DNA of 37,574 bases from Natronobiforma cellulositropha (lineage in GTDB: Archaea > Halobacteriota > Halobacteria > Halobacteriales > Natrialbaceae): assembly GCF_025629245.1 (NCBI RefSeq), contig NZ_JANZXN010000016.1:1-37574 (forward strand), read 5' to 3'. Below the pieces are notes generated by a model. It was not told where the DNA came from. It saw only the letters and a program-made list of their open reading frames with translations, and did no database searches. The position numbers were made by a program, and so were the translations under genes. The stretch's first letter is position 1, and each line of letters opens with the position of its first letter. Below, piece by piece: positions 1 to 37,574 of this stretch.

Positions 1-285
1 CAGAGCGAGGAGGGTCGCCGCAATCCGGTCGGGATTTCTGTTCGCTGGAAGCGTCTGATAGCCACGCTCGCGATAGACGGTGTACTTCGCGAAGAGGCGA
101 GCCTCGGCTATCGATTCTTTTTCTTCGATTGTCCGCTCCTCTGCGTTGTCTGGGTACCCATTTTGCTTGTGGTATACTACCTTCCAATCGTCTTTTCTGA
201 TCGACATTTCGTGTACTACACCCGAATTATCGACAACGTCTATACCAACCCCTTCTTGGTTTTCACCAACCACCTCACCTTTCAT
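1..285 (-). CDS. Cassette partner protein, headless left cassette (3' part outside window)
   Basis: Partial gene of the partner family that follows every DUF4157 gene in this window; 95 codons are visible and the C-terminus lies beyond base 1. The reading begins MKGEVVGENQEGVGIDVVDN and contains the family hallmarks: a VDNSGVVHE segment near residue 22, a YHKQNGYP segment near 40 and a YRERGY motif near 76. The ATG overlaps the stop of the preceding tail gene (TGA 282-284 inside ATGA), so translation is probably coupled to it. The first 150 bases are AT-richer than the surrounding DNA, as in the other partners. No function is known to me. From the context it could be an immunity protein or a loading/chaperone partner for the upstream tail. 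Confidence 0.8.
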   Translation of the reverse strand, partial: MKGEVVGENQEGVGIDVVDNSGVVHEMSIRKDDWKVVYHKQNGYPDNAEERTIEEKESIAEARLFAKYTVYRERGYQTLPANRNPDRIAATLLAL

Positions 286-875
286 TTATTTTCACCACGA
301 ACCCCCGTTGGGTCTTCTTCGCTAGATACCTCGTGGCTCTGTCTCACAGACTCAACAGCTCCAGCCCACGCCTCAGCGAGCTGTTTGTATCCAACGTCGA
401 CCAGCAGGTCGTACACCTGACCTGCGCTCGCGCTACTGAGCGACCGAATTGGTTCGGCTCCAACGCGCTTGATGACCGCCGCCGCCCCGACGTGTGCGCC
501 AGCGGCGACTTCCGTCTGACCCGTGGTCGTCCAGATTGGACCACTTACGCCGACGAGTGCTAGCAAGTTCGCCGCTGCCCCGACGACCGTATCACTCTCC
601 GCCCGGTCCTCGACCATGTCACGACCACTATCTCTGACTGCTTCTCGAGGGTCGAGGCGCTCGAGCAGTGCCCCGAGGGTACTGTCGTCGGCTGTCGTTC
701 CGTCGAACTCCCCGTCTTCGAAGGCATCGAGCGTCGACTGTTGCGGGCCGTCGTCACCGATCGACAGACGCTGCACGTGAACGTCCATCCCTAATCGGTG
801 AGCTACCACCGGCACCTCTCCCTCGAGTGCCTTCCTCGCCACCTCGTCCGCTTCGCGCTCGAGTAGACACACCAT
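282..875 (-). CDS. Headless DUF4157-cassette tail (orphan C-terminal module)
   Basis: A 197-codon frame that keeps only the last piece of the DUF4157 domain: [13 protein letters not shown], then the [13 protein letters not shown] boundary at about residues 27-37. A variable tail of about 160 residues follows. The HELAH part is missing entirely. The tail has a hydrophobic run (VVGAAANLLALVGVSG) and a second Ala/Gly-rich stretch. It starts at an ATG only 8 bases after the stop of the previous partner gene and overlaps the next partner gene by ATGA, so the three genes read as one transcript. This is the layout of the orphan toxin-tail plus immunity modules found downstream of Rhs and CdiA genes. 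It may be translated by coupling or be a silent reservoir for recombination. No enzymatic motif is recognised. Confidence 0.65.
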   Translation of the reverse strand: MVCLLEREADEVARKALEGEVPVVAHRLGMDVHVQRLSIGDDGPQQSTLDAFEDGEFDGTTADDSTLGALLERLDPREAVRDSGRDMVEDRAESDTVVGAAANLLALVGVSGPIWTTTGQTEVAAGAHVGAAAVIKRVGAEPIRSLSSASAGQVYDLLVDVGYKQLAEAWAGAVESVRQSHEVSSEEDPTGVRGENK

Positions 876-883
876 CGAGACAC

Positions 884-1780
884 CTAAGAGGGGTCCCAGG
901 AGGTGATCGTCGCCTCCGGCGACCAGTACTCCTCGTAGAGGTCACAGAACGTCTGTGCCTGGAAACCGTCGTAGGTGCCCCAGCCCTGTGCCTGAAACGC
1001 TACTGGTGGCGTCAGCCCCATCAACAGAAAGCGGTCGCGAATCTGGTAGGCCAGGTGCGAGACGAGGTAGTGCTGGAAGGAGTCGACCTCGTCGGGATCG
1101 AACGCCAGCAGTTCGATCCGCGCGTCCGGTGCCCGCTCGAGCGGCTGGTCGGTGGGAATCGTCTGCTGGCTACCACGGCCGTCGTTGTACAGATAGCCCA
1201 GCCCAGAAACCGCCTCGAGGTCGAACTCGAGTGCGTCGAGGTCGTCGTCGGTCAGGTCACCGGCCTGGGTGAACAGCGAGGAGTCGAGTGGGCCATCGAA
1301 GTGAGCCCGAAACTGCTCGAGAACCGGCGGGTCGAACTCGAGCGGGTCCGGTTCGAGATAGAGGTCCTGCCGGTAGACGATCGCCCCGTCCGGATCGGCG
1401 TCGGCGAACGGCAACTCGACGCTCGAGCCGTCGTAGTGGCTCCGTAACTGCCTCTCGAGGTCGCCGAACGACGCCTCGAACGACGCACTCGAGAGGCGCG
1501 TCAGTGCCAACAGGGCGGCGAGAATCCGGTCGGGGTTCTCCGTCGACGGCACGGTGTCGTAGCCGCGCTCGCGGTAGACGTACCACTGTGCGTAGCGGCG
1601 GGCCTGTTCACCGTACTCGGTCTGGGTTCTGGTGCGCTTGGCAGGGTTGTTGGGATATGGGTCGCACTTATGGAACCTAATCTCACCAGTAGCCGTCATC
1701 TCGATCAAATGCTCTACATCATTGTTATCGATGATGCTGAGGCCAACACGTTCGGATTCTCCTGTTATGAGTGCGTCCAT
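884..1780 (-). CDS. Cassette partner protein, left full cassette
   Basis: 298-aa acidic protein without signal peptide or membrane segment, starting 2 bases after the stop of the left DUF4157 gene. The N-terminal third is shared with the other partners (IIDNNDVEHLIEM near residue 17, QARRYAQWYVYRERGY near 59-74, FGDL near 107). The middle is variable. The C-terminal part is again conserved (PLERAPDARIELL, then a YQIRDRFLLMGLTPP stretch near 250). The closest relative in the window is the partner at 33628-34533; both begin MDA-I-TGES. Constant ends with a variable middle suggest a common fold adapted to different tails. An immunity protein or an effector chaperone/adaptor are the main options; the sequence alone does not decide. 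Confidence 0.8.
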   Translation of the reverse strand: MDALITGESERVGLSIIDNNDVEHLIEMTATGEIRFHKCDPYPNNPAKRTRTQTEYGEQARRYAQWYVYRERGYDTVPSTENPDRILAALLALTRLSSASFEASFGDLERQLRSHYDGSSVELPFADADPDGAIVYRQDLYLEPDPLEFDPPVLEQFRAHFDGPLDSSLFTQAGDLTDDDLDALEFDLEAVSGLGYLYNDGRGSQQTIPTDQPLERAPDARIELLAFDPDEVDSFQHYLVSHLAYQIRDRFLLMGLTPPVAFQAQGWGTYDGFQAQTFCDLYEEYWSPEATITSWDPS

Positions 1781-1782
1781 TG

Positions 1783-3240
1783 CTACTCTCTCCTCGATCG
1801 TGCGTCGCCAGTCGATTCTGTATCACCGTACCAGGTGCCTGCACGAATTTCTTTTTCGATCTGTTTTGCGCGCTCGGCCAGCGAGCCGCTCGAGTTCGAC
1901 CAGATCTGACGGACATCGTCCCAGCCAGAGATCGCTCTGCGGCGAACGCGGCCGACTGCCTGGGTTCCGATCTCGTCGACATCGACGCCTTTCGCCTTCC
2001 CTGCGAGCGAAGAGGCTGCAACGAACGTTCCGAGTGTCGTCGCCGAGAGGACGCCCTTGACCACCGACCAGGAGAGGCTATCCCACCGGTCGGTACTGAT
2101 GTTGCCGTGTAACTCGAGTCGCTGGTCCTCGGTGAGACCGACATCCGAGAGGTCGGCATTGACCGATGCAGCCAGGGCGTCGACTTCGGATTTGAGATCG
2201 CCGATAGACGGACCACGTTGTGCCAGTTCGGCCGCAACGGGTGACTCGGAAGCAGCGGCCTGCACCGACTCTTTCTTTTTCACCTGGCTCTGAACGTCCT
2301 GTTTCTCGAGGACCTCACCGGCGACACCGTGGAGGAAGCCGATGCGGTTGGCGTTCTGGCCCTGTCGGAACTCACTGACCTCACCGCTGTCGTTCTCGCT
2401 CTCGAAGAGTGCCAGCGCCTCGAACGTCTTCTCCTCTGGAATTCGTTGTACGTGGACATCCATCCCCAGTCGGTGAGCTACCACTGGCTCCTCACCTTCG
2501 AGTGCCTTCCTCGCCACCTCGTCCGCTTCGCGCTCGAGCGCTGGGTCGGGGTCGATCACCAGCGAACTCCCCTCCTGCGGGAGCATACTGATCTGACCGC
2601 CGGTCTGCTGTCGCACGTGAGCCAGCTCGTGCGCGAGCAGATATTTGCCTTCAGGACTCTCCGGCTTGTACTCGCCGCGGTTGAACACCACGTGGTTACC
2701 AGTCGTGAAGGCGCGTGCCTCGAGTGCGCTCGCGGCTTTCGCCGCTTCTGGACCGGTGTGAAGCTGCACGTCACTGAAGGACTCGCCCATGCGCGTTTCC
2801 ATCTCCTCGCGGACGGAACCCTCGAGCGGCTTTCCAGGCTGTGAAATCACGCGCCGAACCACGTCGGGTGTCGCGGTCTCACCTGCTAAATCGCTCTCGG
2901 CCTGCGCCTCCACCGAGCGCATGGCACTCGGTGTGTCGAGTTCGACGCCCGCCGCCCGGCTCCGCGCTCGAGCGACGCGAACATGCTCGCCCGTCGGCGT
3001 GTTTATGCCTTCAGGCAGTTCACCGCGTTCGCCCCACCGTTGGACCTGCTCGAAGCCACGGGTCTGGATCAGCCGGTCGAGCTGGGCCGCCTGCTCGGGC
3101 GAGGGTCGCAGTACGCTCGAGAGATACTGGTGTGGGCGAGTTCCGCCCTGTGTCTGGGGCTGCGCTCGAGCGCGCCGTGTTCGTTCGTTGTTCTCACTAT
3201 CGTCGTTCGACCGGTCGCGCCGATCACGGTCGAAACTCAC
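1783..3240 (-). CDS. DUF4157 polymorphic toxin-like protein, left copy
   Basis: 485 aa. Residues 1-130 are a charged, conserved leader (SFDRDRRDRSNDD at the start). Residues about 131-245 form the DUF4157 domain, with the zinc-protease-like motif HELAH at 204-208 and a possible third ligand in EREAD at 236-240. The constant part ends at HVQR (263-266). A unique tail of 219 residues follows, with a lysine/glutamine-rich stretch, then a hydrophobic Gly/Ala run (VVKGVLSATTLGTFVAASS) and a basic helical end. The start is GTG: an in-frame TGA lies two codons upstream, and GAGGTG sits six bases before the GTG. DUF4157 is known from polymorphic toxins and from effectors of extracellular contractile injection systems. 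No catalytic motif is recognised in the tail; a membrane-active role is a guess. Confidence 0.85.
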   Translation of the reverse strand: MSFDRDRRDRSNDDSENNERTRRARAQPQTQGGTRPHQYLSSVLRPSPEQAAQLDRLIQTRGFEQVQRWGERGELPEGINTPTGEHVRVARARSRAAGVELDTPSAMRSVEAQAESDLAGETATPDVVRRVISQPGKPLEGSVREEMETRMGESFSDVQLHTGPEAAKAASALEARAFTTGNHVVFNRGEYKPESPEGKYLLAHELAHVRQQTGGQISMLPQEGSSLVIDPDPALEREADEVARKALEGEEPVVAHRLGMDVHVQRIPEEKTFEALALFESENDSGEVSEFRQGQNANRIGFLHGVAGEVLEKQDVQSQVKKKESVQAAASESPVAAELAQRGPSIGDLKSEVDALAASVNADLSDVGLTEDQRLELHGNISTDRWDSLSWSVVKGVLSATTLGTFVAASSLAGKAKGVDVDEIGTQAVGRVRRRAISGWDDVRQIWSNSSGSLAERAKQIEKEIRAGTWYGDTESTGDARSRRE

Positions 3241-29563: not shown

Positions 29564-30736
29564 GTGAGTTTCGACCGGGACCGGCGCGACCGGTCGAACG
29601 ACGACAGTGAGCGGAACGAGCACGTCCGGCGCGCTCGAGCGGGGCCACATCAGTATCTCTCGAGTGTACTACGACCCTCGCCCGAGCAGGCGGCCCAGCT
29701 CGACCAGCTAATCCAGACCCGCGGATTCGATCAGGTCCAGGCGTGGGGCGAACGCGGTGAGTTGCCCGAAGGCTGTAACACGCCGACGGGCGAGCAGGTT
29801 CGTATCGCTCGAGTGCGGAGCTCCCTGGGAGCGGGCGTCGAACTCGACACCGAGAGTGCCATGCGCTCGGTGGAGGCGCAAGCCGATACTGGTCTCGCGG
29901 GTGAGACGGCCACACCCGAGGTCGTCCGGCGCGTGCTCTCGAGACCGGGGAAACCGCTCGAGGGAGCCGTCCGAGACGAGATGGAGCAACGGATGGGCGA
30001 CTCGTTTTCGGATGTACAGCTACACACTGGACCGGAGGCCGCGAAGGCGGCGAGCGCGCTCGAGGCACGCGCTTTCACGACCGGGAATCACGTGGTGTTC
30101 AACCGCGGGGAGTACGACCCTGAGAGCGCGGAAGGGAAATATCTGCTCGCGCACGAATTAGCTCACGTGCGACAGCAGACCGCTGGCCGAATCAGTTTGC
30201 TCTCGCAAGAGCGCCGTTCACTGGTGATCGAACCGAACCCAGCACTCGAGCGCAATGCCACGGGGTACATCGTCCGGGGGAGCGAACTCGAAATTCAGCG
30301 CCTCGCCACGACGACGGTCCACGTCCAGCGAGTCGATAAAACTCGCCGAGAGGTGCTCCAGGGCGATGTCTCGACGGAGGAGATAGAGGCAGGAATCGAA
30401 GACACTGACCTCCTGAGCGTCGGTCCCGACCGGTTGCGCGACGCCTACAAGTACGCCGAGTACGCGGTCACACTCGGCACGACTCAGAGCGTTGTCCAGC
30501 CGCTCGTCTCGGAGTACGGACTGACTCAGCCCGAAGCGATGGCGGTGACGCTCGCCGTCGGCGGAACCATCCACGTCGGCAAAGACCGACTCCACCGCGA
30601 AGACATCTACCTCACGCTCGAGGTCGCTCGAGTGCTCGGACAAGAAGAGCGAGTGATCGAGTTCTTCCGGAGGATGGATATCGACATGCCGTGGGATGTT
30701 GAGGACCCATATGATGGTGGTGGTGAATCACCATGA
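29564..30736 (+). CDS. DUF4157 polymorphic toxin-like protein, right copy 1
   Basis: 390 aa from GTG 29564 with GAGGTG upstream; an ATG 81 bases earlier lies inside the conserved upstream element and is not preferred. The constant region is shorter in the leader. It keeps the DUF4157 core with HELAH near residue 197. However, it replaces the EREAD motif by ERNATGYIVRG, losing the probable third metal ligand. Two boundary-like motifs occur (LEIQR and VHVQR at about 252-256). The 134-residue tail starts TRREVLQGDVSTEEIE, resembling the tail start of right copy 3, and holds AMAVTLAVGGTIHVGK. It overlaps the partner gene by ATGA. It may be catalytically inactive. Confidence 0.85.
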   Translation: MSFDRDRRDRSNDDSERNEHVRRARAGPHQYLSSVLRPSPEQAAQLDQLIQTRGFDQVQAWGERGELPEGCNTPTGEQVRIARVRSSLGAGVELDTESAMRSVEAQADTGLAGETATPEVVRRVLSRPGKPLEGAVRDEMEQRMGDSFSDVQLHTGPEAAKAASALEARAFTTGNHVVFNRGEYDPESAEGKYLLAHELAHVRQQTAGRISLLSQERRSLVIEPNPALERNATGYIVRGSELEIQRLATTTVHVQRVDKTRREVLQGDVSTEEIEAGIEDTDLLSVGPDRLRDAYKYAEYAVTLGTTQSVVQPLVSEYGLTQPEAMAVTLAVGGTIHVGKDRLHREDIYLTLEVARVLGQEERVIEFFRRMDIDMPWDVEDPYDGGGESP

Positions 30737-31773
30737 AAGCGGATGTCGATGGAGATGACGGTGAATATGTGAAGATCTATGTCACAGACCAAAATGACGT
30801 AGAGCATAATCTTACTGTCGAGATAATGTCTGGAAGAATATCATACCACAAACAGGATTACTACCCAAACAGAACGTCCAAACAATCGAGTAACGATGTA
30901 GTCTATCTCAGTCAAGTCCAGGAGTATGCTAAGTATACGGTTCAGCGGACGTTAGGATACCCAACGCTCCCCCCACGCCTAACCCCGGAGTGGATTCCCT
31001 ACACGCTCGGCGCGGTGTTCGGTCTCGAGTTCGATAGTTTCGAACGACAGTTCGGTCCCTACGCCCAGCAGTACCACAGTGCGCTCCACCCCAAGGTTCC
31101 CCCCATCGTGGAGATGCCCGAGGAGACCGCCCCCGTCGGCGGTATCGTCTACCGCGCCGACGTGTTTCTCGCCCTCGAGTTCGACGCCTATCTCGAGGAT
31201 CCAGTGGCTGCGTCACCGATAGAAGCCTTCGCGGGAACCACCGACGCGTACGACCTCTACGAGGCGCTGGCGGCCGAACTCGAGGCGCGCCTGCCGCCGG
31301 ACACGGCACCGATCACCGAAGTGTCGGCGCTCGATCTCCAGTACCAGCGCCGCGCCAACGACGGCAGTGTCGAGGAGCCGGTCGTTGGCGAGCGCAGTCA
31401 CACCAGCGCGGGACCACCCGACGCACAGCTCCAGATGACGCCTCCACAGGCCACCCTCGAGTCGGAACTGACGGCCGAGATCGTTCAGGGTCTGCTCTGT
31501 CACCACCTCCAGTGTCAGGTCCGCGATGCGTATCTCCGGCTCGGACTCGAGCCCCCGGAGGCGTTTCGCGTCCTCGGCCAGGGCTTCGCCGAACAGACGA
31601 TGCACTACCAGCACGCCGATGTCTACCCGCCGTACCACCTCACCGACGCCGAGATTGAAGGCTACCGGCCGCCGGGTATCGAACACGGGGCACTGGCGAG
31701 CGGAGGGTTCGCCGGGCCGGGCCAGCCCGGCCCACTGCTGCGGCGCATCGTCCGCGCGCTGTTTGGCCGGTAG
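30733..31773 (+). CDS. Cassette partner protein, right copy 1
   Basis: 346 aa, the longest and most divergent partner. The N-terminus keeps TDQNDVEHNL and YHKQDYYP, but YRERGY has become VQRTLGYPTL. The conserved C-terminal block is recognisable (LQCQVRDAYLRLGLEPPEAF). It has an extra C-terminal extension ending in a Gly/Pro-rich linker and a basic amphipathic helix (PLLRRIVRALFGR). The first 200 bases are clearly AT-rich compared with the rest of the gene. The ATG overlaps the stop of its DUF4157 partner, so the two are co-translated. Divergence matches that of its paired DUF4157 protein. Confidence 0.8.
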   Translation: MKADVDGDDGEYVKIYVTDQNDVEHNLTVEIMSGRISYHKQDYYPNRTSKQSSNDVVYLSQVQEYAKYTVQRTLGYPTLPPRLTPEWIPYTLGAVFGLEFDSFERQFGPYAQQYHSALHPKVPPIVEMPEETAPVGGIVYRADVFLALEFDAYLEDPVAASPIEAFAGTTDAYDLYEALAAELEARLPPDTAPITEVSALDLQYQRRANDGSVEEPVVGERSHTSAGPPDAQLQMTPPQATLESELTAEIVQGLLCHHLQCQVRDAYLRLGLEPPEAFRVLGQGFAEQTMHYQHADVYPPYHLTDAEIEGYRPPGIEHGALASGGFAGPGQPGPLLRRIVRALFGR

Positions 31774-31885
31774 TGACCACGGCCGAGCGAGCGCTGAAAC
31801 GAGAACGGACGTGCGAGACGGGCGATGTTGACTACGGCTCGAGACGTGAGCACCGGTCACGCGGTCTCGGCTACTGGTGGGTGTC

Positions 31886-32287
31886 TCACTCGCGAAGCAT
31901 CGTCTGGAGGAAGGTGAGAATCGCGCCGAAGAGCGTCCCGAGGACGAAGGTGAACGCGTCACCGCTGAGTGCGCCCTGGGCAGTCATCCCGGCGGCGATC
32001 AGCACGACGGCGAGAAAGGTCCCCGCGGCGGTGTAGACGATCCGGCGCTGGTGGGCGAAGTGGCGGCGCTGGGCGTCGTGGTCGACGCGTTTCGTCTCTC
32101 GAGTCTCCTCGAGATACGACGTGATCAGCCCGGTGATGTCGCCGAGGTGGTCCAGAATCGGCTGGAGGTCGGAGGCCTGGTCGTCGGCGCGGTCGGGCGA
32201 CTCGTCGTACTCGAGTGTCGAGTGCGCTTTCGGCTCTTCGACGCCGCTGAAGAGGGGCTTGTACCCCTCGCTCGAGTGTTCGGTCAC
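31886..32287 (-). CDS. Two-helix membrane protein with coiled-coil head, copy A
   Basis: 133 aa from GTG 32287 (TTG 32290 also possible). An acidic N-terminus of about 38 residues is followed by a helical, probably coiled-coil region (ILDHLGDITGLITSYLEETR). Two membrane helices (TAAGTFLAVVLIAAGMTAQG and FTFVLGTLFGAILTFLQTML) close the protein. From about residue 39 on it is identical to copy B at 34615. It faces away from the next DUF4157 gene and its start lies inside the 27-bp element. Possible roles are self-protection at the membrane or a release factor (holin-like topology). Both are guesses. Confidence 0.75.
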   Translation of the reverse strand: MTEHSSEGYKPLFSGVEEPKAHSTLEYDESPDRADDQASDLQPILDHLGDITGLITSYLEETRETKRVDHDAQRRHFAHQRRIVYTAAGTFLAVVLIAAGMTAQGALSGDAFTFVLGTLFGAILTFLQTMLRE

Positions 32288-32297: not shown

Positions 32298-32356
32298 GAT
32301 GAGCGAGTAGTAACGCTTCGATAATTACCAATGCAACGACACACGAGGTGGAGCGT

Positions 32357-33625
32357 GTGAGCTTCGACCGGGACCGACGCGACCGCTCGAACGACGACAG
32401 TGAGCGAAACGAACGAACACGGCGCGCTCGAGTGCAGGCCCAGGCCGCGCGCGGAGCGCGCCCCCACCACCATCTCTCGAGCGTGCGACAGCCCTCACCC
32501 GAGCACGCGGCCATCCTCGATCAGATGATCCTGAGGCGTGGTCTCGAGGACGTCCAGGAGTTGGGCGAACGGGGTGAACTCCCGCGCGGCTGTAACACGC
32601 CGACGGGCGAACAGGTCCGTGATGCTCGAGTGCGTAGCTCCTGGAAAGCGGGTGTCGAACTCGATACGCCGAGTGCGATGCGTTCGGTCCAGGCGCAGGC
32701 GGAGAGTGATCTGGTAGGTGAGACAGCCACACCAGAGGTGGTGCGGCGGGTGATCTCCCAACCAGGAAAGCCGCTCGAGGGAGCCGTCCGCGAGGAGATG
32801 GAAGCGCGGATGGGGGACTCGTTTTCTGACGTACAGCTGCACACGGGGCCGGAGGCTGCGAAAGCAGCGAGTGCGCTCGAGGCACGGGCGTTCACGACCG
32901 GCAATCACGTGGTGTTCAACCGCGGGGAGTACGACCCAGAGAGTGCGGAGGGGAAGTACCTGCTCGCGCACGAGTTAGCTCACGTCCGCCAGCAGACCGG
33001 TGGCCAGGTCAGTATGCTTCCGCAGGAAGGGAGTTCGCTCGTGATCGATCCGGACCCCGAACTCGAGCGTGAAGCTGACGAGGTAGCGAGGAAGGCGCTC
33101 GATGCAGAAGCGATTCCGATCGCTCGCCTTCCGTCGGGTGTCGAGGTTCACGTCCAACGGTTCCAGGGACCGGGTGGTGTCCACTCGAGCGGCGGGACGC
33201 TTCCGGCCCATCAGGATGCCAAGGAGAAATTTCATACCGAGGACGGCCAGTTGCGCTCACCGCACCGTCCAGCAGGACCGTCAGTAACGCTGACTGATAT
33301 CAAAGCGGAGTACGGTCTCAGTGACCACGAGTTGACACTCCTGTACGAGGACCATTTCGGCCAGCAAATCCAGACAGACACCGAGTACGAGTTCTCCGAT
33401 TCGGTCGAAGCAGCGGCATTGAGCCTGACCAAAGCGGCCCTAGCGGATGTCGTTCCGGGGCTGAGTTTCGCCTACGCTGCCCACTCGGGATACAAAGCTT
33501 GGGCGGACCAGACCGATAGCAATGTGAAAGACCGACTCAAACAACTCATCGGCTCCGCCATCGAACACGCGAAGACTGGAGCAGGTGACTCGACTGGTGA
33601 TGCAGTATCCAGAGAGGATTTGTAA
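32357..33625 (+). CDS. DUF4157 polymorphic toxin-like protein, right copy 2
   Basis: 422 aa from GTG 32357 (GTG 32348 is in frame but overlaps the GAGGTG ribosome-binding site). Leader MSFDRDRRDRSNDD-type, DUF4157 domain with HELAH near 205-209 and EREAD near 237, boundary HVQR at 265-268. The 154-residue tail is unlike the others: His/Gly-rich start, then a helical part (TLTDIKAEYGLSDHELTLLY) and a hydrophobic stretch (ALSLTKAALADVVPGLSFAY). The constant region lies in the 2729-base-offset repeat shared with right copy 3, while the tails do not match. The partner gene follows after 2 bases. Confidence 0.86.
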   Translation: MSFDRDRRDRSNDDSERNERTRRARVQAQAARGARPHHHLSSVRQPSPEHAAILDQMILRRGLEDVQELGERGELPRGCNTPTGEQVRDARVRSSWKAGVELDTPSAMRSVQAQAESDLVGETATPEVVRRVISQPGKPLEGAVREEMEARMGDSFSDVQLHTGPEAAKAASALEARAFTTGNHVVFNRGEYDPESAEGKYLLAHELAHVRQQTGGQVSMLPQEGSSLVIDPDPELEREADEVARKALDAEAIPIARLPSGVEVHVQRFQGPGGVHSSGGTLPAHQDAKEKFHTEDGQLRSPHRPAGPSVTLTDIKAEYGLSDHELTLLYEDHFGQQIQTDTEYEFSDSVEAAALSLTKAALADVVPGLSFAYAAHSGYKAWADQTDSNVKDRLKQLIGSAIEHAKTGAGDSTGDAVSREDL

Positions 33626-33627
33626 AT

Positions 33628-34533
33628 ATGGACGCAATTATCACCGGCGAATCCAAGCGGGTTGGCCTCAGCGTGCTCGACAACAACCAAGTAGAACACC
33701 TGATCGAAATGGACGAGTTTGGCAATATCAAATATCACGATCAGGATGGCTACGCCGACAGCCCGAACGAACGAACAGACGAAGAGAACGAACACGTCAA
33801 CCAGGCACGTCGCTACGCCAGATACCACGTCTACCGCGAACGCGGCTACGAGACGCTCGAGCGGGTCGACAATCCCGACTGTATTCTGGCGGCGATGATC
33901 GCCGTTGGGTGTCTTTCTGGCTCTGCATTCGAACGTCACTTCGGTGATCTCTACGACCGACTTCGAGAGCACGTCAGTGGCTCGAGGATCGACCTACCGG
34001 TTGATGGGGCCAATCCCGATGGGATCGTCGTTTACCGAAAAGACCTCTACCTCGAGCCAGACCCAACTGCCGTCCAAAAGGCTGCCAGGACTGCCCTCAC
34101 GACGTACGGCGCAGAACCCGGAGACTCGATCGACGGCGAAACGCTCACCGCGGCACTCGAGAAACTCGCCACCGACTCCACGCTCGAAGGCGCTCTCGCG
34201 TTCGAGATCGAGGCAACCTCTCCGTGTTATGCACTCTACAACGACGGCTACAACAACGAACACGTCGAACCCGTCGGCCAGCCACTCGAGCGAGAGCCCG
34301 ACGCGCGAGTCGAACCGATGCCGATCAGTGTCGACAGTCTACCAGCGTTTCAGGAGTACCTCCTCGCACACCTTGCTTACCAAGTACGCGATTGCTACGT
34401 CTGTATGGGTGTCACGCCACCAGCCGGATTCAGAGATACCGGCTACGGGAAGTACCGGTGTTCGCTCTACCAACAGTCGACCGACCTCTACGAGAACTAC
34501 TACGACGAGTCCGAGTCGATCGACTCCTGGTGA
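33628..34533 (+). CDS. Cassette partner protein, right copy 2
   Basis: 301 aa, beginning MDAIITGESKRVGLSVLDNN. It is very close at the N-terminus to the left partner (884-1780) although their tails differ. VYRERGYETL near 74, FGDLYDRL near 107, then a variable middle of about 90 residues, and the C-terminal block PLEREPDARVEPMP, YQVRDCYVCMGVTPP. No signal peptide or membrane helix. N-terminal similarity across unlike tails argues that part of the protein serves a shared function, for instance binding the constant head or delivery machinery. Confidence 0.82.
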   Translation: MDAIITGESKRVGLSVLDNNQVEHLIEMDEFGNIKYHDQDGYADSPNERTDEENEHVNQARRYARYHVYRERGYETLERVDNPDCILAAMIAVGCLSGSAFERHFGDLYDRLREHVSGSRIDLPVDGANPDGIVVYRKDLYLEPDPTAVQKAARTALTTYGAEPGDSIDGETLTAALEKLATDSTLEGALAFEIEATSPCYALYNDGYNNEHVEPVGQPLEREPDARVEPMPISVDSLPAFQEYLLAHLAYQVRDCYVCMGVTPPAGFRDTGYGKYRCSLYQQSTDLYENYYDESESIDSW

Positions 34534-34614
34534 GGGTGCGTCGCTGGTGTCGACCCCAATCTGGCGCTCGAGACGTGAGCACCGGTCACGCGGTCTCGGC
34601 TACTGGTGGGTGTC

Positions 34615-35016
34615 TCACTCCCGGAGCATCGTCTGGAGGAAGGTGAGAATCGCGCCGAAGAGCGTTCCGAGGACGAAGGTGAACGCATCACCGCTGAGTG
34701 CGCCCTGGGCGGTCATCCCGGCGGCGATCAGCACGACAGCGAGAAAGGTCCCCGCGGCGGTGTAGACGATCCGGCGCTGGTGGGCGAAGTGGCGGCGCTG
34801 GGCGTCGTGGTCGACGCGTTTCGTCTCTCGAGTCTCCTCGAGATAGGACGTGATCAGCCCGGTGATGTCGCCGAGGTGGTCCAGAATCGGCTGGAGGTCG
34901 GAGACCTGGTCGTCGTCGCGGTCGGGCGACTCGTCGTACTCGAGTGTCGAGCGCGCTGTCGGCCCTTCGTCGCCGCTGAACAGCGGCTTGTACTCCTCGC
35001 TCGAGTGTTCGATCAT
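34615..35016 (-). CDS. Two-helix membrane protein with coiled-coil head, copy B
   Basis: 133 aa from ATG 35016. Same architecture as copy A; differences are confined to roughly the first 38 residues (for example FSGDEGPTARSTLEY against FSGVEEPKAHSTLEY). The identical remainder includes both membrane helices and HFAHQRRIVYTAAG. The copies lie only before right copies 2 and 3, not before right copy 1 or the left cassette, so they are not essential for every cassette. Confidence 0.75.
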   Translation of the reverse strand: MIEHSSEEYKPLFSGDEGPTARSTLEYDESPDRDDDQVSDLQPILDHLGDITGLITSYLEETRETKRVDHDAQRRHFAHQRRIVYTAAGTFLAVVLIAAGMTAQGALSGDAFTFVLGTLFGAILTFLQTMLRE

Positions 35017-35026: not shown

Positions 35027-35085
35027 GATGAGAGAGCAGTAACGCTTCGATAATTACCAATGCAACGACACACGAGGTGGAGCGT

Positions 35086-36192
35086 GTGAGCTTCGACCGG
35101 GACCGACGCGACCGCTCGAACGACGACAGTGAGCGAAACGAACGAACACGGCGCACTCGAGCGCAGGCCCAGACCCAGCGCGGGGCGCGGCCGTACCAGT
35201 ACCTGAACCGAGTGGGCCAACCCTCGCGCGACCAGGCGGCCATCCTCGATCAGATGATCCTGCGGCGTGGTCTCGAGAACGTCCAGGAGTTGGGCGAACG
35301 CGGTGAACTCCCCGAAGGCTGTAACACGCCGATGGGCGAGCAGGTTCGCGTCGCTCGAGTGCGTAGCTCCTGGAAAGCGGGCGTCGAACTCGACACCGAG
35401 AGCGCGATGCGCTCGGTGGAGGCGCAGGCCGAGAGCGACCTGGCAGGTGAGACCGCGACACCCGACGTGGTGCGGCGGGTGATTTCCCAGCCAGGACGGC
35501 CGCTCGAGGGATCCGTCCGCAAAGAGATGGAAGCGCGGATGGGGGACTCGTTTTCTGACGTACAGCTGCACACTGGGCCGGAGGCCGCGAAGGCGGCGAG
35601 CGCGCTCGAGGCGCGGGCGTTCACCACCGGGAACCACGTGGTGTTCAACCGCGGCGAGTACGATCCGGAGAGTCCCGACGGGAAATATCTGCTCGCGCAC
35701 GAATTAGCTCACGTGCGACAGCAGACTGGTGGTGCGATTAGTATGCTCCCCCAGGAAGGGAGTTCACTGGTCATCGATCCCGACCCCGAACTCGAGCGTG
35801 AGGCCGACGAGGTGGCGAGGAAGGCACTCGAAGGTGAGGAGCCAGTGGTGGCTCACCGACTCGGGCCCAATGTCTCGATCCAGCGTACGCCTGAAGTGAG
35901 TCGCCGCGGGGTGCTCAAAGGCGACTTCGGCCTGGAAGAAGTCGAAGAAGCCACGGACGACCTCGAGTTTGGCGAGGTCGATCACAGCAAAGTCGCCGCT
36001 GCGGGGCTCACTTCGCTCCTCCCCGTCATCGGTCCGATGCTGGATCAGTACGTCGATCAGAAGTTTGCACCACAGCAGTTGCACGCCAGGCTTCGACAGA
36101 TCGATCCACCTGAAGAGTGGGTCGAACAGACTGCCAGGCGGGCAGTCACCATGGTTGATAATATCGCAACCAGTGGAACACGGTTCGATTAA
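35086..36192 (+). CDS. DUF4157 polymorphic toxin-like protein, right copy 3
   Basis: 368 aa from GTG 35086. Constant head with HELAH near 205-209, EREAD near 237 and a variant boundary VSIQR ending at 267. The short 101-residue tail starts SRRGVLKGDFGLEEVEE, which resembles the tail start of right copy 1. It continues with a hydrophobic helix (AAAGLTSLLPVIGPMLDQYV) and an amphipathic C-terminus. The gene ends 5 bases before its partner. Head and upstream region are the repeat shared with copy 2. Confidence 0.86.
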   Translation: MSFDRDRRDRSNDDSERNERTRRTRAQAQTQRGARPYQYLNRVGQPSRDQAAILDQMILRRGLENVQELGERGELPEGCNTPMGEQVRVARVRSSWKAGVELDTESAMRSVEAQAESDLAGETATPDVVRRVISQPGRPLEGSVRKEMEARMGDSFSDVQLHTGPEAAKAASALEARAFTTGNHVVFNRGEYDPESPDGKYLLAHELAHVRQQTGGAISMLPQEGSSLVIDPDPELEREADEVARKALEGEEPVVAHRLGPNVSIQRTPEVSRRGVLKGDFGLEEVEEATDDLEFGEVDHSKVAAAGLTSLLPVIGPMLDQYVDQKFAPQQLHARLRQIDPPEEWVEQTARRAVTMVDNIATSGTRFD

Positions 36193-36197
36193 CCACA

Positions 36198-37196
36198 ATG
36201 AATGCAGCAATCATTGACCAAGACGAACGCGGCATTGGTGTTAGAATCACGGACAATAACGGCGTGAAACACACTGTCGCGATCGGTTTTGATGGGAGTT
36301 TGCAGGGGCACTCACAGAACGGCTATCCTGATGACCCAGCCGAGCGCTCGATGATCGACGAAGTCGAACCCATCAACCAGGCCCGGCGCTTCGCGAAGTA
36401 CTGGGTCTACCGTGAGCGCGGTTACGACACCCTCTCGCTCAACGAAAACCCTCACCGCATCGCCGCGGTGGCGCTCGTCCTCGCGGGCCTCTCTGCAGAA
36501 ACCTTCGAAGAACACTTCACCGACCTCTACTTGCAGGTCGCCAGCCACTACGGCGAGACCGAACCATCCGTGACACTACCGGAGGGTGCCCGCCCGACAC
36601 ACGTCACCTACCGAACGGACGTCTACCTCGGTCTCGATGACGACGCGCTCGCAACGCTCGCACGTGCAGTCACCGACCCTGATGCGACTGCCTTCCTCCG
36701 AACAGTGCACAACGGCGACGTTACCCACCGCTCTTTCGAGGCGGTTCTCACACCCATACTCGAGGCGGGCGAGGCTGACGCCGTCGGCGATCTGTCCGCC
36801 GACGACCTTCTCGAGGCCGTCTCAGGCATCCACGTCCACTGGGACGACAGCGCTGGTGTCTACCACACCGAATGGGGCGACCAGCCATCGCTCGAGCGTG
36901 ATCCAGATGCACGAATCGACCTGTTGCCGTACGACCCTGCGTCGTTCGCGGAGTTTCGCGCCCAACTCATTAGAATCCTCTACTGTCAGGTTCGGGATTG
37001 CTACCTCGGCATGGGAATCGCGCCGCCCGATGCCTTCCGACTCCAGGGTCACGGCATCCACGAGTTCGCCACCTGGTACGAGCACTACGACTTCTACGAG
37101 CGCTACCACGACCCGAACGCCACAGTCTCGACCTGGTACGACGAACACACACCCGAGGGCGTCTACGACCTGCCTGCATTTGCAGGCGGTGAATGA
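36198..37196 (+). CDS. Cassette partner protein, right copy 3
   Basis: 332 aa. N-terminus ITDNNGVKHTVAI near 17, GYPDDPAER near 42, QARRFAKYWVYRERGYDTL near 59-77. The middle is longer and unlike the other partners. The C-terminal block is SLERDPDARIDLLPYD with YCQVRDCYLGMGIAPPDAFR near 265. It ends in an acidic tail. Stop TGA at 37194-37196 is followed after three bases by the truncated DUF4157 copy. Function as for the family: immunity or adaptor, undecided. Confidence 0.82.
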   Translation: MNAAIIDQDERGIGVRITDNNGVKHTVAIGFDGSLQGHSQNGYPDDPAERSMIDEVEPINQARRFAKYWVYRERGYDTLSLNENPHRIAAVALVLAGLSAETFEEHFTDLYLQVASHYGETEPSVTLPEGARPTHVTYRTDVYLGLDDDALATLARAVTDPDATAFLRTVHNGDVTHRSFEAVLTPILEAGEADAVGDLSADDLLEAVSGIHVHWDDSAGVYHTEWGDQPSLERDPDARIDLLPYDPASFAEFRAQLIRILYCQVRDCYLGMGIAPPDAFRLQGHGIHEFATWYEHYDFYERYHDPNATVSTWYDEHTPEGVYDLPAFAGGE

Positions 37197-37199
37197 CGA

Positions 37200-37574
37200 T
37201 TGTCTACAATCTCACTGCAACGCCGGTCGCTCGAGGCACGCGCCTTCACGATCGGCAACCACGTGGTGTTCAACCGCGGTGAGTACAATCCTGAGAGTCC
37301 GGAGGGGAAGTACCTCTTGGCGCACGAGCTGGCTCACGTCCGCCAGCAGACCGGCGGTCAGGTCAGTATGCTTCCACAGGAGGGGAGTTCGCTGGTCATC
37401 GACCCCGATCCAGCACTCGAGCGCGAAGCGGACGAGGTAGCGAGGAAGGCACTCGAGGGCGAGGAGCCGGTGGTGGCTCACCGCCTGGGGATGGACGTTC
37501 ACGTCCAGCGCTCAGCCGAGGGCGGGATTGGACCCATCGCCAAAGAGACCGAGGACGGCACGGTCGTGGCCGAC
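37200..37574 (+). pseudogene. Truncated DUF4157 cassette (orphan head-fragment plus tail, continues past window)
   Basis: Frame beginning at a possible TTG (37200) just after the previous partner's stop. Constant-domain homology starts abruptly at [19 protein letters not shown], so the leader and first half of DUF4157 are missing. HELAH, EREAD and GMDVHVQR are intact, followed by a new tail ([16 protein letters not shown]) that runs off the end. No ATG or GTG start and no 27-bp upstream element. It is best read as an orphan module like that at 282-875, either silent or expressed by coupling. Confidence 0.7.

What the first reader, a model, noticed from the sequence alone, without database searches (positions are those of the whole stretch)
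1783..3240. Sharp constant/variable switch at a V-Q-R motif
In every copy the shared sequence ends at H-V-Q-R or S-I-Q-R and unrelated sequence begins within one or two residues (tails start IPEE, LSIG, VDKT, FQGP, TPEV, SAEG). Such a fixed junction could be a processing site for release of the tail by the DUF4157 peptidase or a host protease, and it also marks the recombination boundary. The same boundary is seen at 282-875, 29564-30736, 32357-33625, 35086-36192 and 37200-37574.
Basis: partly seen in the sequence, partly recalled or inferred. Interest (0 to 1): 0.75.

Follow-up and report, generated by a model that had tools for sequence, protein, structure and literature searches.

The report
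Swappable toxin tails with paired tags
A salt-loving archaeon carries about 34 injected-toxin genes built from one shared front part and interchangeable tails; the fixed Val-Gln-Arg joint is a conserved motif of this toxin-carrier family and travels with the tail, and the tail's tip is swapped together with the front end of the neighbouring, probably protective, protein.

Summary
The junction is real. All six copies in the window, and 58 of 61 haloarchaeal DUF4157 (eCIS_core) proteins chosen only by HExxH, carry [VI]QR 57-63 residues after HExxH (shuffle expectation 1.8). Column entropy jumps from 0.1-0.4 bit at Q and R to at least 3 bits just after. Codons for Q and R vary, so the constraint is on the protein.

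VQR is not the exchange boundary. Tail identity and head residues stay linked about 30 residues upstream, to the LEREAD block where many tail-only orphan cassettes also begin; VQR travels with the tail.

The motif is family-wide. [VIL]QR is about ninefold enriched on both sides of the peptidase core in 58 non-redundant bacterial proteins, and the residue after R is small or hydrophobic in 84 of 87 tails. Processing by the peptidase is plausible but unproven; a docking motif is the main rival.

An unexpected second mosaic appeared. Each tail is followed by a companion (probable immunity) gene. Tail body and companion body are inherited together, while the tail's last ~15 residues and the companion's first ~40 residues form a separate unit that reassorts independently, in haloarchaea from several genera. 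I read this as an interchangeable tag-and-reader pair.

The parts
1783..3240 (-). Unit B effector: head with eCIS_core (HELAH about 2617-2631), VQR, tail class IPEE
   Evidence: PF13699 E=8.9e-32; translation; tail class
2443..2451 (-). VQR junction of unit B
1786..1830 (-). Tail tip (last 15 residues, ..GDTESTGDARSRRE) of unit B, part of the second exchange block
1664..1780 (-). Companion N-terminal 'reader' block of unit B (codons 1-39), a predicted four-stranded beta domain, exchanged with the tail tip
884..1780 (-). Companion gene of unit B, probable immunity protein; its body covaries with the tail body
282..875 (-). Unit A orphan cassette: only the last ~33 residues of the head (768-866), VQR 768-776, tail class LSIG
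1..285 (-). Companion of unit A, cut by the contig end
29483..30736 (+). Unit C effector, VQR 30323-30331 (extra IQR ten residues upstream), tail class VDKT
30733..31773 (+). Companion of unit C
32348..33625 (+). Unit D effector, VQR 33152-33160, tail class FQGP
33628..34533 (+). Companion of unit D; reader block close to that of unit B although tails and bodies differ
35077..36192 (+). Unit E effector, IQR 35878-35886, tail class TPEV
36198..37196 (+). Companion of unit E
37200..37574 (+). Unit F truncated copy (head from LEARAF on), VQR 37503-37511, tail SAEG cut by the contig end

Best explanation
These are interchangeable effector and probable immunity cassettes of a haloarchaeal contractile injection system. 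Each effector has a shared head (N-terminal part plus the eCIS_core zincin-like peptidase), a [VI]QR joint, and a toxin tail; a downstream companion gene most likely encodes the matching immunity protein. Shown by comparison: new tails are put on heads by homologous exchange in the block around LEREADEVA, about 30 codons upstream of VQR, so VQR belongs to the travelling module and is held fixed by selection on the protein. Shown by comparison: [VIL]QR is a recurrent short motif in the linkers on both sides of the peptidase core across bacterial phyla. Inferred: VQR is a processing site, cut by the effector's own peptidase or another protease between R and the small/hydrophobic next residue, freeing the tail. 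Shown by comparison: a second block (tail tip, stop/start, first ~40 codons of the companion) reassorts independently of tail body and companion body. Inferred: the tip is a tag recognised by the companion's N-terminal beta domain, so tag and reader must be exchanged together.
For: 34 eCIS_core matches in one genome and a CIS locus there: sheath, spike, hub and AAA ATPase. Tail classes recur on different heads and on orphans with 90-100% tail DNA identity against mostly 80-90% in heads. Tail-head association 0.29, 0.22 and 0.20 in the three 10-residue bins upstream of QR, then 0.04 and about 0. Q codons CAG30/CAA8, R codons CGG13/CGT10/CGC10/CGA5. [VI]QR 58/61 by HExxH-only choice. In 58 non-redundant bacterial proteins 42 vs 4.5 expected downstream, 37 vs 4.1 upstream, 6 vs 2.7 in a control region; VQR, IQR and LQR rank 2, 3 and 5 among enriched tripeptides, the others in the top six being parts of the core itself (VQQ, EAD, IQQ). 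Residue after R small/hydrophobic 84/87 vs 46% at +2..+12. One tail in the genome is a Colicin D domain, E=5.4e-25. Companion body tracks tail body: Mantel r=0.89 in this genome, 0.62 over 63 units. Tip tracks companion N-terminus r=0.51, p=0.0005, cross-comparisons at most 0.05. Hypervariable island flanked by 90-100% identity in nearly all of 13 same-tail pairs. In H. larsenii the same pairs lie inside the CIS gene cluster. In H. borinquense DUF4157 effectors are secreted CIS-dependently and downstream partners prevent toxicity (PMC11566945).
Against: No cleavage has been observed. L027 lost HELAH but keeps VQR, and Cgo1 toxicity does not need the metalloprotease motifs (PMC8894135). Bacterial proteins often carry several [VIL]QR copies in acidic linkers, also N-terminal to the peptidase, which fits multivalent docking as well. 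The AlphaFold model of unit E is poor and gives the junction pLDDT 20-35, so there is no structural support for the motif in the active site. Tip and reader are adjacent in DNA, so co-assortment alone does not prove contact; charge complementarity is weak once families are collapsed. That the companion is an immunity protein is by analogy; homology to the tested H. borinquense partners was not checked.
Confidence: 0.6

Rival explanations
1. [VIL]QR is a docking motif, not a cut site: a short strand-like segment that the CIS spike, tube or a loading factor binds, present in one copy after the core in haloarchaea and in several copies in bacteria.
For: Enriched on both sides of the core and in tandem with acidic linkers in bacteria. 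DUF4157 proteins bind or co-purify with the spike/baseplate in Streptomyces (PMC13277306, PMC11126660). L027 without HELAH keeps it.
Against: A docking motif does not by itself explain the near-fixed position at the peptidase-tail joint or the small/hydrophobic residue right after R.
Confidence: 0.3
2. VQR is simply the structural end of the conserved peptidase domain (last strand of a hairpin, V-x-N-R-M-G-x-x-V-H-I-Q-R), kept for folding; tails start after it because the domain ends there.
For: R at about -9 and the V/H/V pattern are also conserved. The motif pairs with an upstream R-[LM]-G turn in most copies.
Against: In bacteria the motif lies at very different distances from HExxH (10 to about 100 residues) and also upstream of the core. 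In copy C the preceding 40 residues are replaced but HVQR stays.
Confidence: 0.2
3. VQR marks a site-specific or homologous recombination boundary and is conserved as DNA.
For: Sequence similarity between different tail classes ends at VQR in most pairs.
Against: All Arg CGN codons and both Gln codons are used. Linkage to the tail extends about 30 residues upstream. Orphans start at LEREAD or earlier.
Confidence: 0.04
4. The tail tip and companion N-terminus are just a weakly constrained, fast-drifting stretch between two genes, not an exchanged unit.
For: Same-tail pairs are no more alike there than unrelated pairs.
Against: Near-identical tip plus N-terminus units recur with unrelated tails in different genera, e.g. 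L267 and L269 with 80-100% DNA identity over about 200 nt between dissimilar flanks; 96 of 98 pairs sharing the N-terminus have different tails.
Confidence: 0.05

Closest known systems
PVC-metallopeptidase (DUF4157/eCIS_core) polymorphic toxins, Zhang et al. 2012 (PMC3482391)
   Same: Constant N-terminal peptidase plus variable C-terminal toxins; autoproteolytic release predicted there; Halogeometricum borinquense named as a rich example.
   Different: In the passages I read no junction motif, no tail-only orphan cassettes for this family and no second tip/companion exchange block are described.
Haloarchaeal T6SS-like CIS of Halogeometricum borinquense (PMC11566945)
   Same: DUF4157 effectors secreted in a CIS-dependent way; several toxic in Haloferax volcanii; the downstream partner gene prevents toxicity.
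   Different: A handful of pairs there, 34 matches here; mosaic structure and VQR are not discussed in the passages read; sequence homology of those partners to this companion family was not tested.
Rhs and CDI polymorphic toxins with orphan toxin/immunity modules (PMC3150448, PMC3967940)
   Same: Constant carrier, variable C-terminal toxin, linked immunity gene, displaced tail modules with a short stretch of carrier homology (from general knowledge and the abstracts).
   Different: Different carrier and delivery machine; and here the joint motif lies inside the travelling module rather than at its edge.

Membership tests
eCIS_core / DUF4157 effectors of contractile injection systems | PF13699 domain above curated cut-off | tested here: met
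   B, C, D, E at E about 1e-31 and F (partial) at 4.7e-19
eCIS_core / DUF4157 effectors of contractile injection systems | HExxHxxQ plus downstream glutamate (third zinc ligand) | tested here: met
   HELAHVRQQ and LEREAD/LERNA block; C has a degenerate LERNAT block
eCIS_core / DUF4157 effectors of contractile injection systems | CIS structural genes in the genome | tested here: met
   Sheath PF04984/PF17482, Phage_base_V spike, GPD hub (below cut-off), AAA ATPase on C60; window units are on another contig
eCIS_core / DUF4157 effectors of contractile injection systems | C-terminal toxin domain | tested here: inconclusive
   Window tails match no Pfam family; other copies in the genome carry Colicin D (above cut-off), SLT (above cut-off) and a sub-threshold PBECR1 nuclease match
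eCIS_core / DUF4157 effectors of contractile injection systems | Autoproteolytic release of the tail | not testable with these tools
   Predicted in PMC3482391; sequence evidence only
Polymorphic toxin-immunity system | Toxin tail and neighbouring immunity gene inherited together | tested here: met
   Mantel r=0.89 (25 units) and 0.62 (63 units) between tail body and companion body
Polymorphic toxin-immunity system | Companion neutralises the toxin | not testable with these tools
   By analogy with H. borinquense pairs (PMC11566945)
Rhs or CDI carrier | RHS repeats or two-partner-secretion/filamentous haemagglutinin carrier | tested here: not met
   Pfam finds only eCIS_core above cut-off in the window proteins

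The most novel reading that the evidence does not exclude
A two-part recognition system: the toxin body is matched by the companion body, and the toxin's C-terminal tag is matched by the companion's N-terminal beta domain; the tag/reader pair is exchanged as one ~200-nt unit across the stop/start junction among otherwise unrelated toxins, giving combinatorial barcodes that keep dozens of parallel pairs apart or change immunity specificity. Upstream, [VIL]QR is a family-wide cleavage motif of DUF4157 peptidases.
Probability: 0.35. Interest if true: 0.85.

Novelty: new variant of a known kind. Interest (0 to 1): 0.68.

Why it matters
DUF4157 is the hallmark domain of CIS effectors and its job is an open question (PMC8213781, PMC11297309). 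A near-invariant, family-wide [VIL]QR motif on both sides of its catalytic core gives a precise, testable site. The second mosaic block shows that a toxin's last residues and its neighbour's first domain move as one unit independently of the rest, an arrangement I did not find described for toxin-immunity pairs; it would explain how a cell keeps some 34 parallel toxin pairs apart.

Tried and rejected
VQR as exchange point or DNA site: rejected by codon usage and linkage decay. My first conservation counts (A1, last columns) were circular because rows had been trimmed at QR; replaced by the HExxH-only test. First bacterial sample was redundant; recounted on 58 non-redundant proteins. AlphaFold of unit E was too poor to place VQR and its Foldseek search found nothing. 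The companion model is good (pLDDT 83.7, pTM 0.87) but matched no solved structure convincingly. PDB by sequence: nothing. Electrostatic complementarity of tip and reader: rho -0.42 over all units but -0.14 to -0.44, mostly not significant, once families are collapsed. A misassembly origin of the mosaics is unlikely because they recur in single-contig genomes (G034, G030, G033, G061) and a complete plasmid. Literature searches for 'VQR motif' and for CIS metalloprotease autoproteolysis returned nothing; the 2019 mBio review on archaeal polymorphic toxins is not held.

Full report
What is there. The window is an entire contig (G000:C8) of a 3.76-Mb, 60-contig draft genome. It lies in the same family as Natrinema pallidum, judging from a relative whose match coordinates coincide with that named record. 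Both ends of the contig hold copies of one cassette type: an effector with an eCIS_core (DUF4157) peptidase and a variable tail, followed by a companion gene. Units B-E have full heads. A is a tail-only orphan with the last ~33 residues of the head, and F is a truncated copy cut by the contig end. The genome has 34 eCIS_core matches, 45 matches to the 49 residues ending in VQR and about 40 companion genes (61 matches). It has a CIS locus with sheath, spike, hub and AAA ATPase on contig C60.

The junction is real and strongly constrained. Among 61 haloarchaeal proteins selected only by HExxH, 58 have [VI]QR 57-63 residues later (expected 1.8). In an unanchored alignment Q is 58/61, R is 60/61, and the next columns have 3.0-3.5 bits of entropy. 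The codons for Q and R vary freely, so selection is on the protein. An earlier count from alignment A1 was circular, because rows were trimmed at QR, and is not used.

It is not where tails are exchanged. Pairs with the same tail on different heads have 90-100% tail DNA identity and mostly 80-90% head identity. The association of tail class with head residues is 0.29, 0.22 and 0.20 for the three 10-residue bins upstream of QR, 0.04-0.08 in the next two and about zero further up; label shuffles never reached the first three values. This places the usual crossover at or upstream of LEREADEVA. Orphan cassettes begin at this block (window A, L036, L037, L038, L040) or at other points upstream of it. 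In copy C most of the head between HELAH and the junction is replaced, yet HVQR is kept.

The motif is general. Downstream of HExxH, [VIL]QR occurs 42 times in 58 non-redundant bacterial proteins (expected 4.5), upstream of the core 37 times (expected 4.1), and 6 times in a control stretch further along the tail (expected 2.7). In an unbiased ranking of tripeptides VQR, IQR and LQR are second, third and fifth; the other leaders (VQQ, EAD, IQQ) are parts of the peptidase core. The reversed motif is not enriched. In haloarchaea the residue after R is small or hydrophobic in 84 of 87 tails, against 46% at the following positions (Fisher p=5e-23, not corrected for relatedness). These facts fit a cleavage site whose following residue is read by the peptidase. 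They do not prove it, and a docking motif remains a serious rival. L027 lost HELAH and keeps VQR, and Cgo1 toxicity does not need the metalloprotease motifs (PMC8894135).

Tails and companions. The window tails match no Pfam family, but one tail in the same genome is a Colicin D domain directly after YIQR, another protein carries an SLT domain, and a third has a sub-threshold PBECR1 nuclease match. Companion bodies track tail bodies (Mantel r=0.89; 0.62 over 63 units). In Haloferax larsenii plasmid pHl5678-1 DUF4157-companion pairs sit inside the CIS gene cluster, next to sheath, AAA ATPase and baseplate genes. In Halogeometricum borinquense such effectors are secreted CIS-dependently and their downstream partners prevent toxicity (PMC11566945). 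I therefore read the companion as an immunity protein, by analogy.

The second mosaic block. In 13 same-tail pairs compared, DNA identity is high in the tail body, falls to about 40-70% from the last ~45 nt of the tail to about codon 40 of the companion, then returns to about 90-100% in the companion body; pairs L036_2902/L036_4459 and window_35032/L030_3 recover only partly. The tip and the companion N-terminus of same-tail pairs are no more alike than those of unrelated pairs (22% vs 23% and 42% vs 42%). Over 63 units from this genome and other haloarchaeal genomes, tip and N-terminus track each other (r=0.51, p=0.0005), tail body and companion body track each other (r=0.62), and all four cross-comparisons are at most 0.05 and not significant. 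96 of 98 pairs that share the N-terminus have unrelated tails. Examples..STGDAxSRR with MDAIITGESERVGLSVIDNNDVEHLIEM in at least six genomes..TRFG/TRFD with a GVRVTDNNG..HTVAVGFDGEIQGHSQ block..GEGGQV with MKAVITGETEELVGINLRDNNGTEH. Between L267 and L269 the shared unit is about 200 nt with 80-100% identity and dissimilar flanks. AlphaFold predicts companion residues 1-39 to be a discrete four-stranded beta domain, just the exchanged piece. I infer a tag (tail tip) and reader (beta domain) that must match; contact is not shown, and charge complementarity is weak after collapsing families.

Limits. Mantel tests treat units as exchangeable and do not correct for phylogeny. Most genomes here are drafts, but the mosaics recur in single-contig genomes and a complete plasmid. 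Tail toxicity, cleavage and protection are untested for these proteins.

Noticed in passing
L289 (G000:C46:1-9555): An eCIS_core effector with a 443-residue tail is followed by a tandem array of about six diverged companion paralogues of two alternating kinds, which looks like an immunity array.
   Followed up: partly
window 35887-35925 and other tails (L024, L028, L030, L032, L033, L036, L113): Eleven of 87 distinct tails have a twin-arginine-like RRxFLxG motif 4-10 residues after QR (e.g. TPEVSRRGVLKG, ALSATRRGFLRG), but without the hydrophobic stretch of a true Tat signal.
   Followed up: partly
window 31837-32136 and 34566-34865: 98% identical 300-nt intergenic repeats between cassettes, inside 425-nt open frames of doubtful coding value.
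   Followed up: no
L041:4351-5670: A haloarchaeal eCIS_core protein with an SLT transglycosylase domain (above cut-off) and no VQR; archaea have no murein, so it may target bacteria.
   Followed up: partly
L023:3314-3619: Colicin D (tRNase) domain as tail directly after YIQR.
   Followed up: partly
L027:3044-4843: eCIS_core copy in which HELAH is deleted (LLAHVRQQ) while VQR and a 301-residue tail are intact.
   Followed up: partly
window 37512-37574 and L033 start (G000:C12): Two contigs end at the same residue of the same tail ([21 protein letters not shown]), an assembly break in a repeated tail.
   Followed up: partly
L286:27731-28258 and 41200-42140: H. larsenii CIS cluster also holds orphan cassettes, one annotated from MQQSGVHVQR on and one unannotated with a tail related to class IPEE.
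   Followed up: partly
L286:26748-27524 and 42133-42789: Annotated companions that seem to lack the N-terminal reader block; possibly start-site errors or truncations.
   Followed up: no
window 1-1000, 30001-31000, 33001-34000, 36001-37000: GC falls to 0.57-0.60 over tails and companions against 0.65-0.72 in most of the rest, as expected for imported tails.
   Followed up: no
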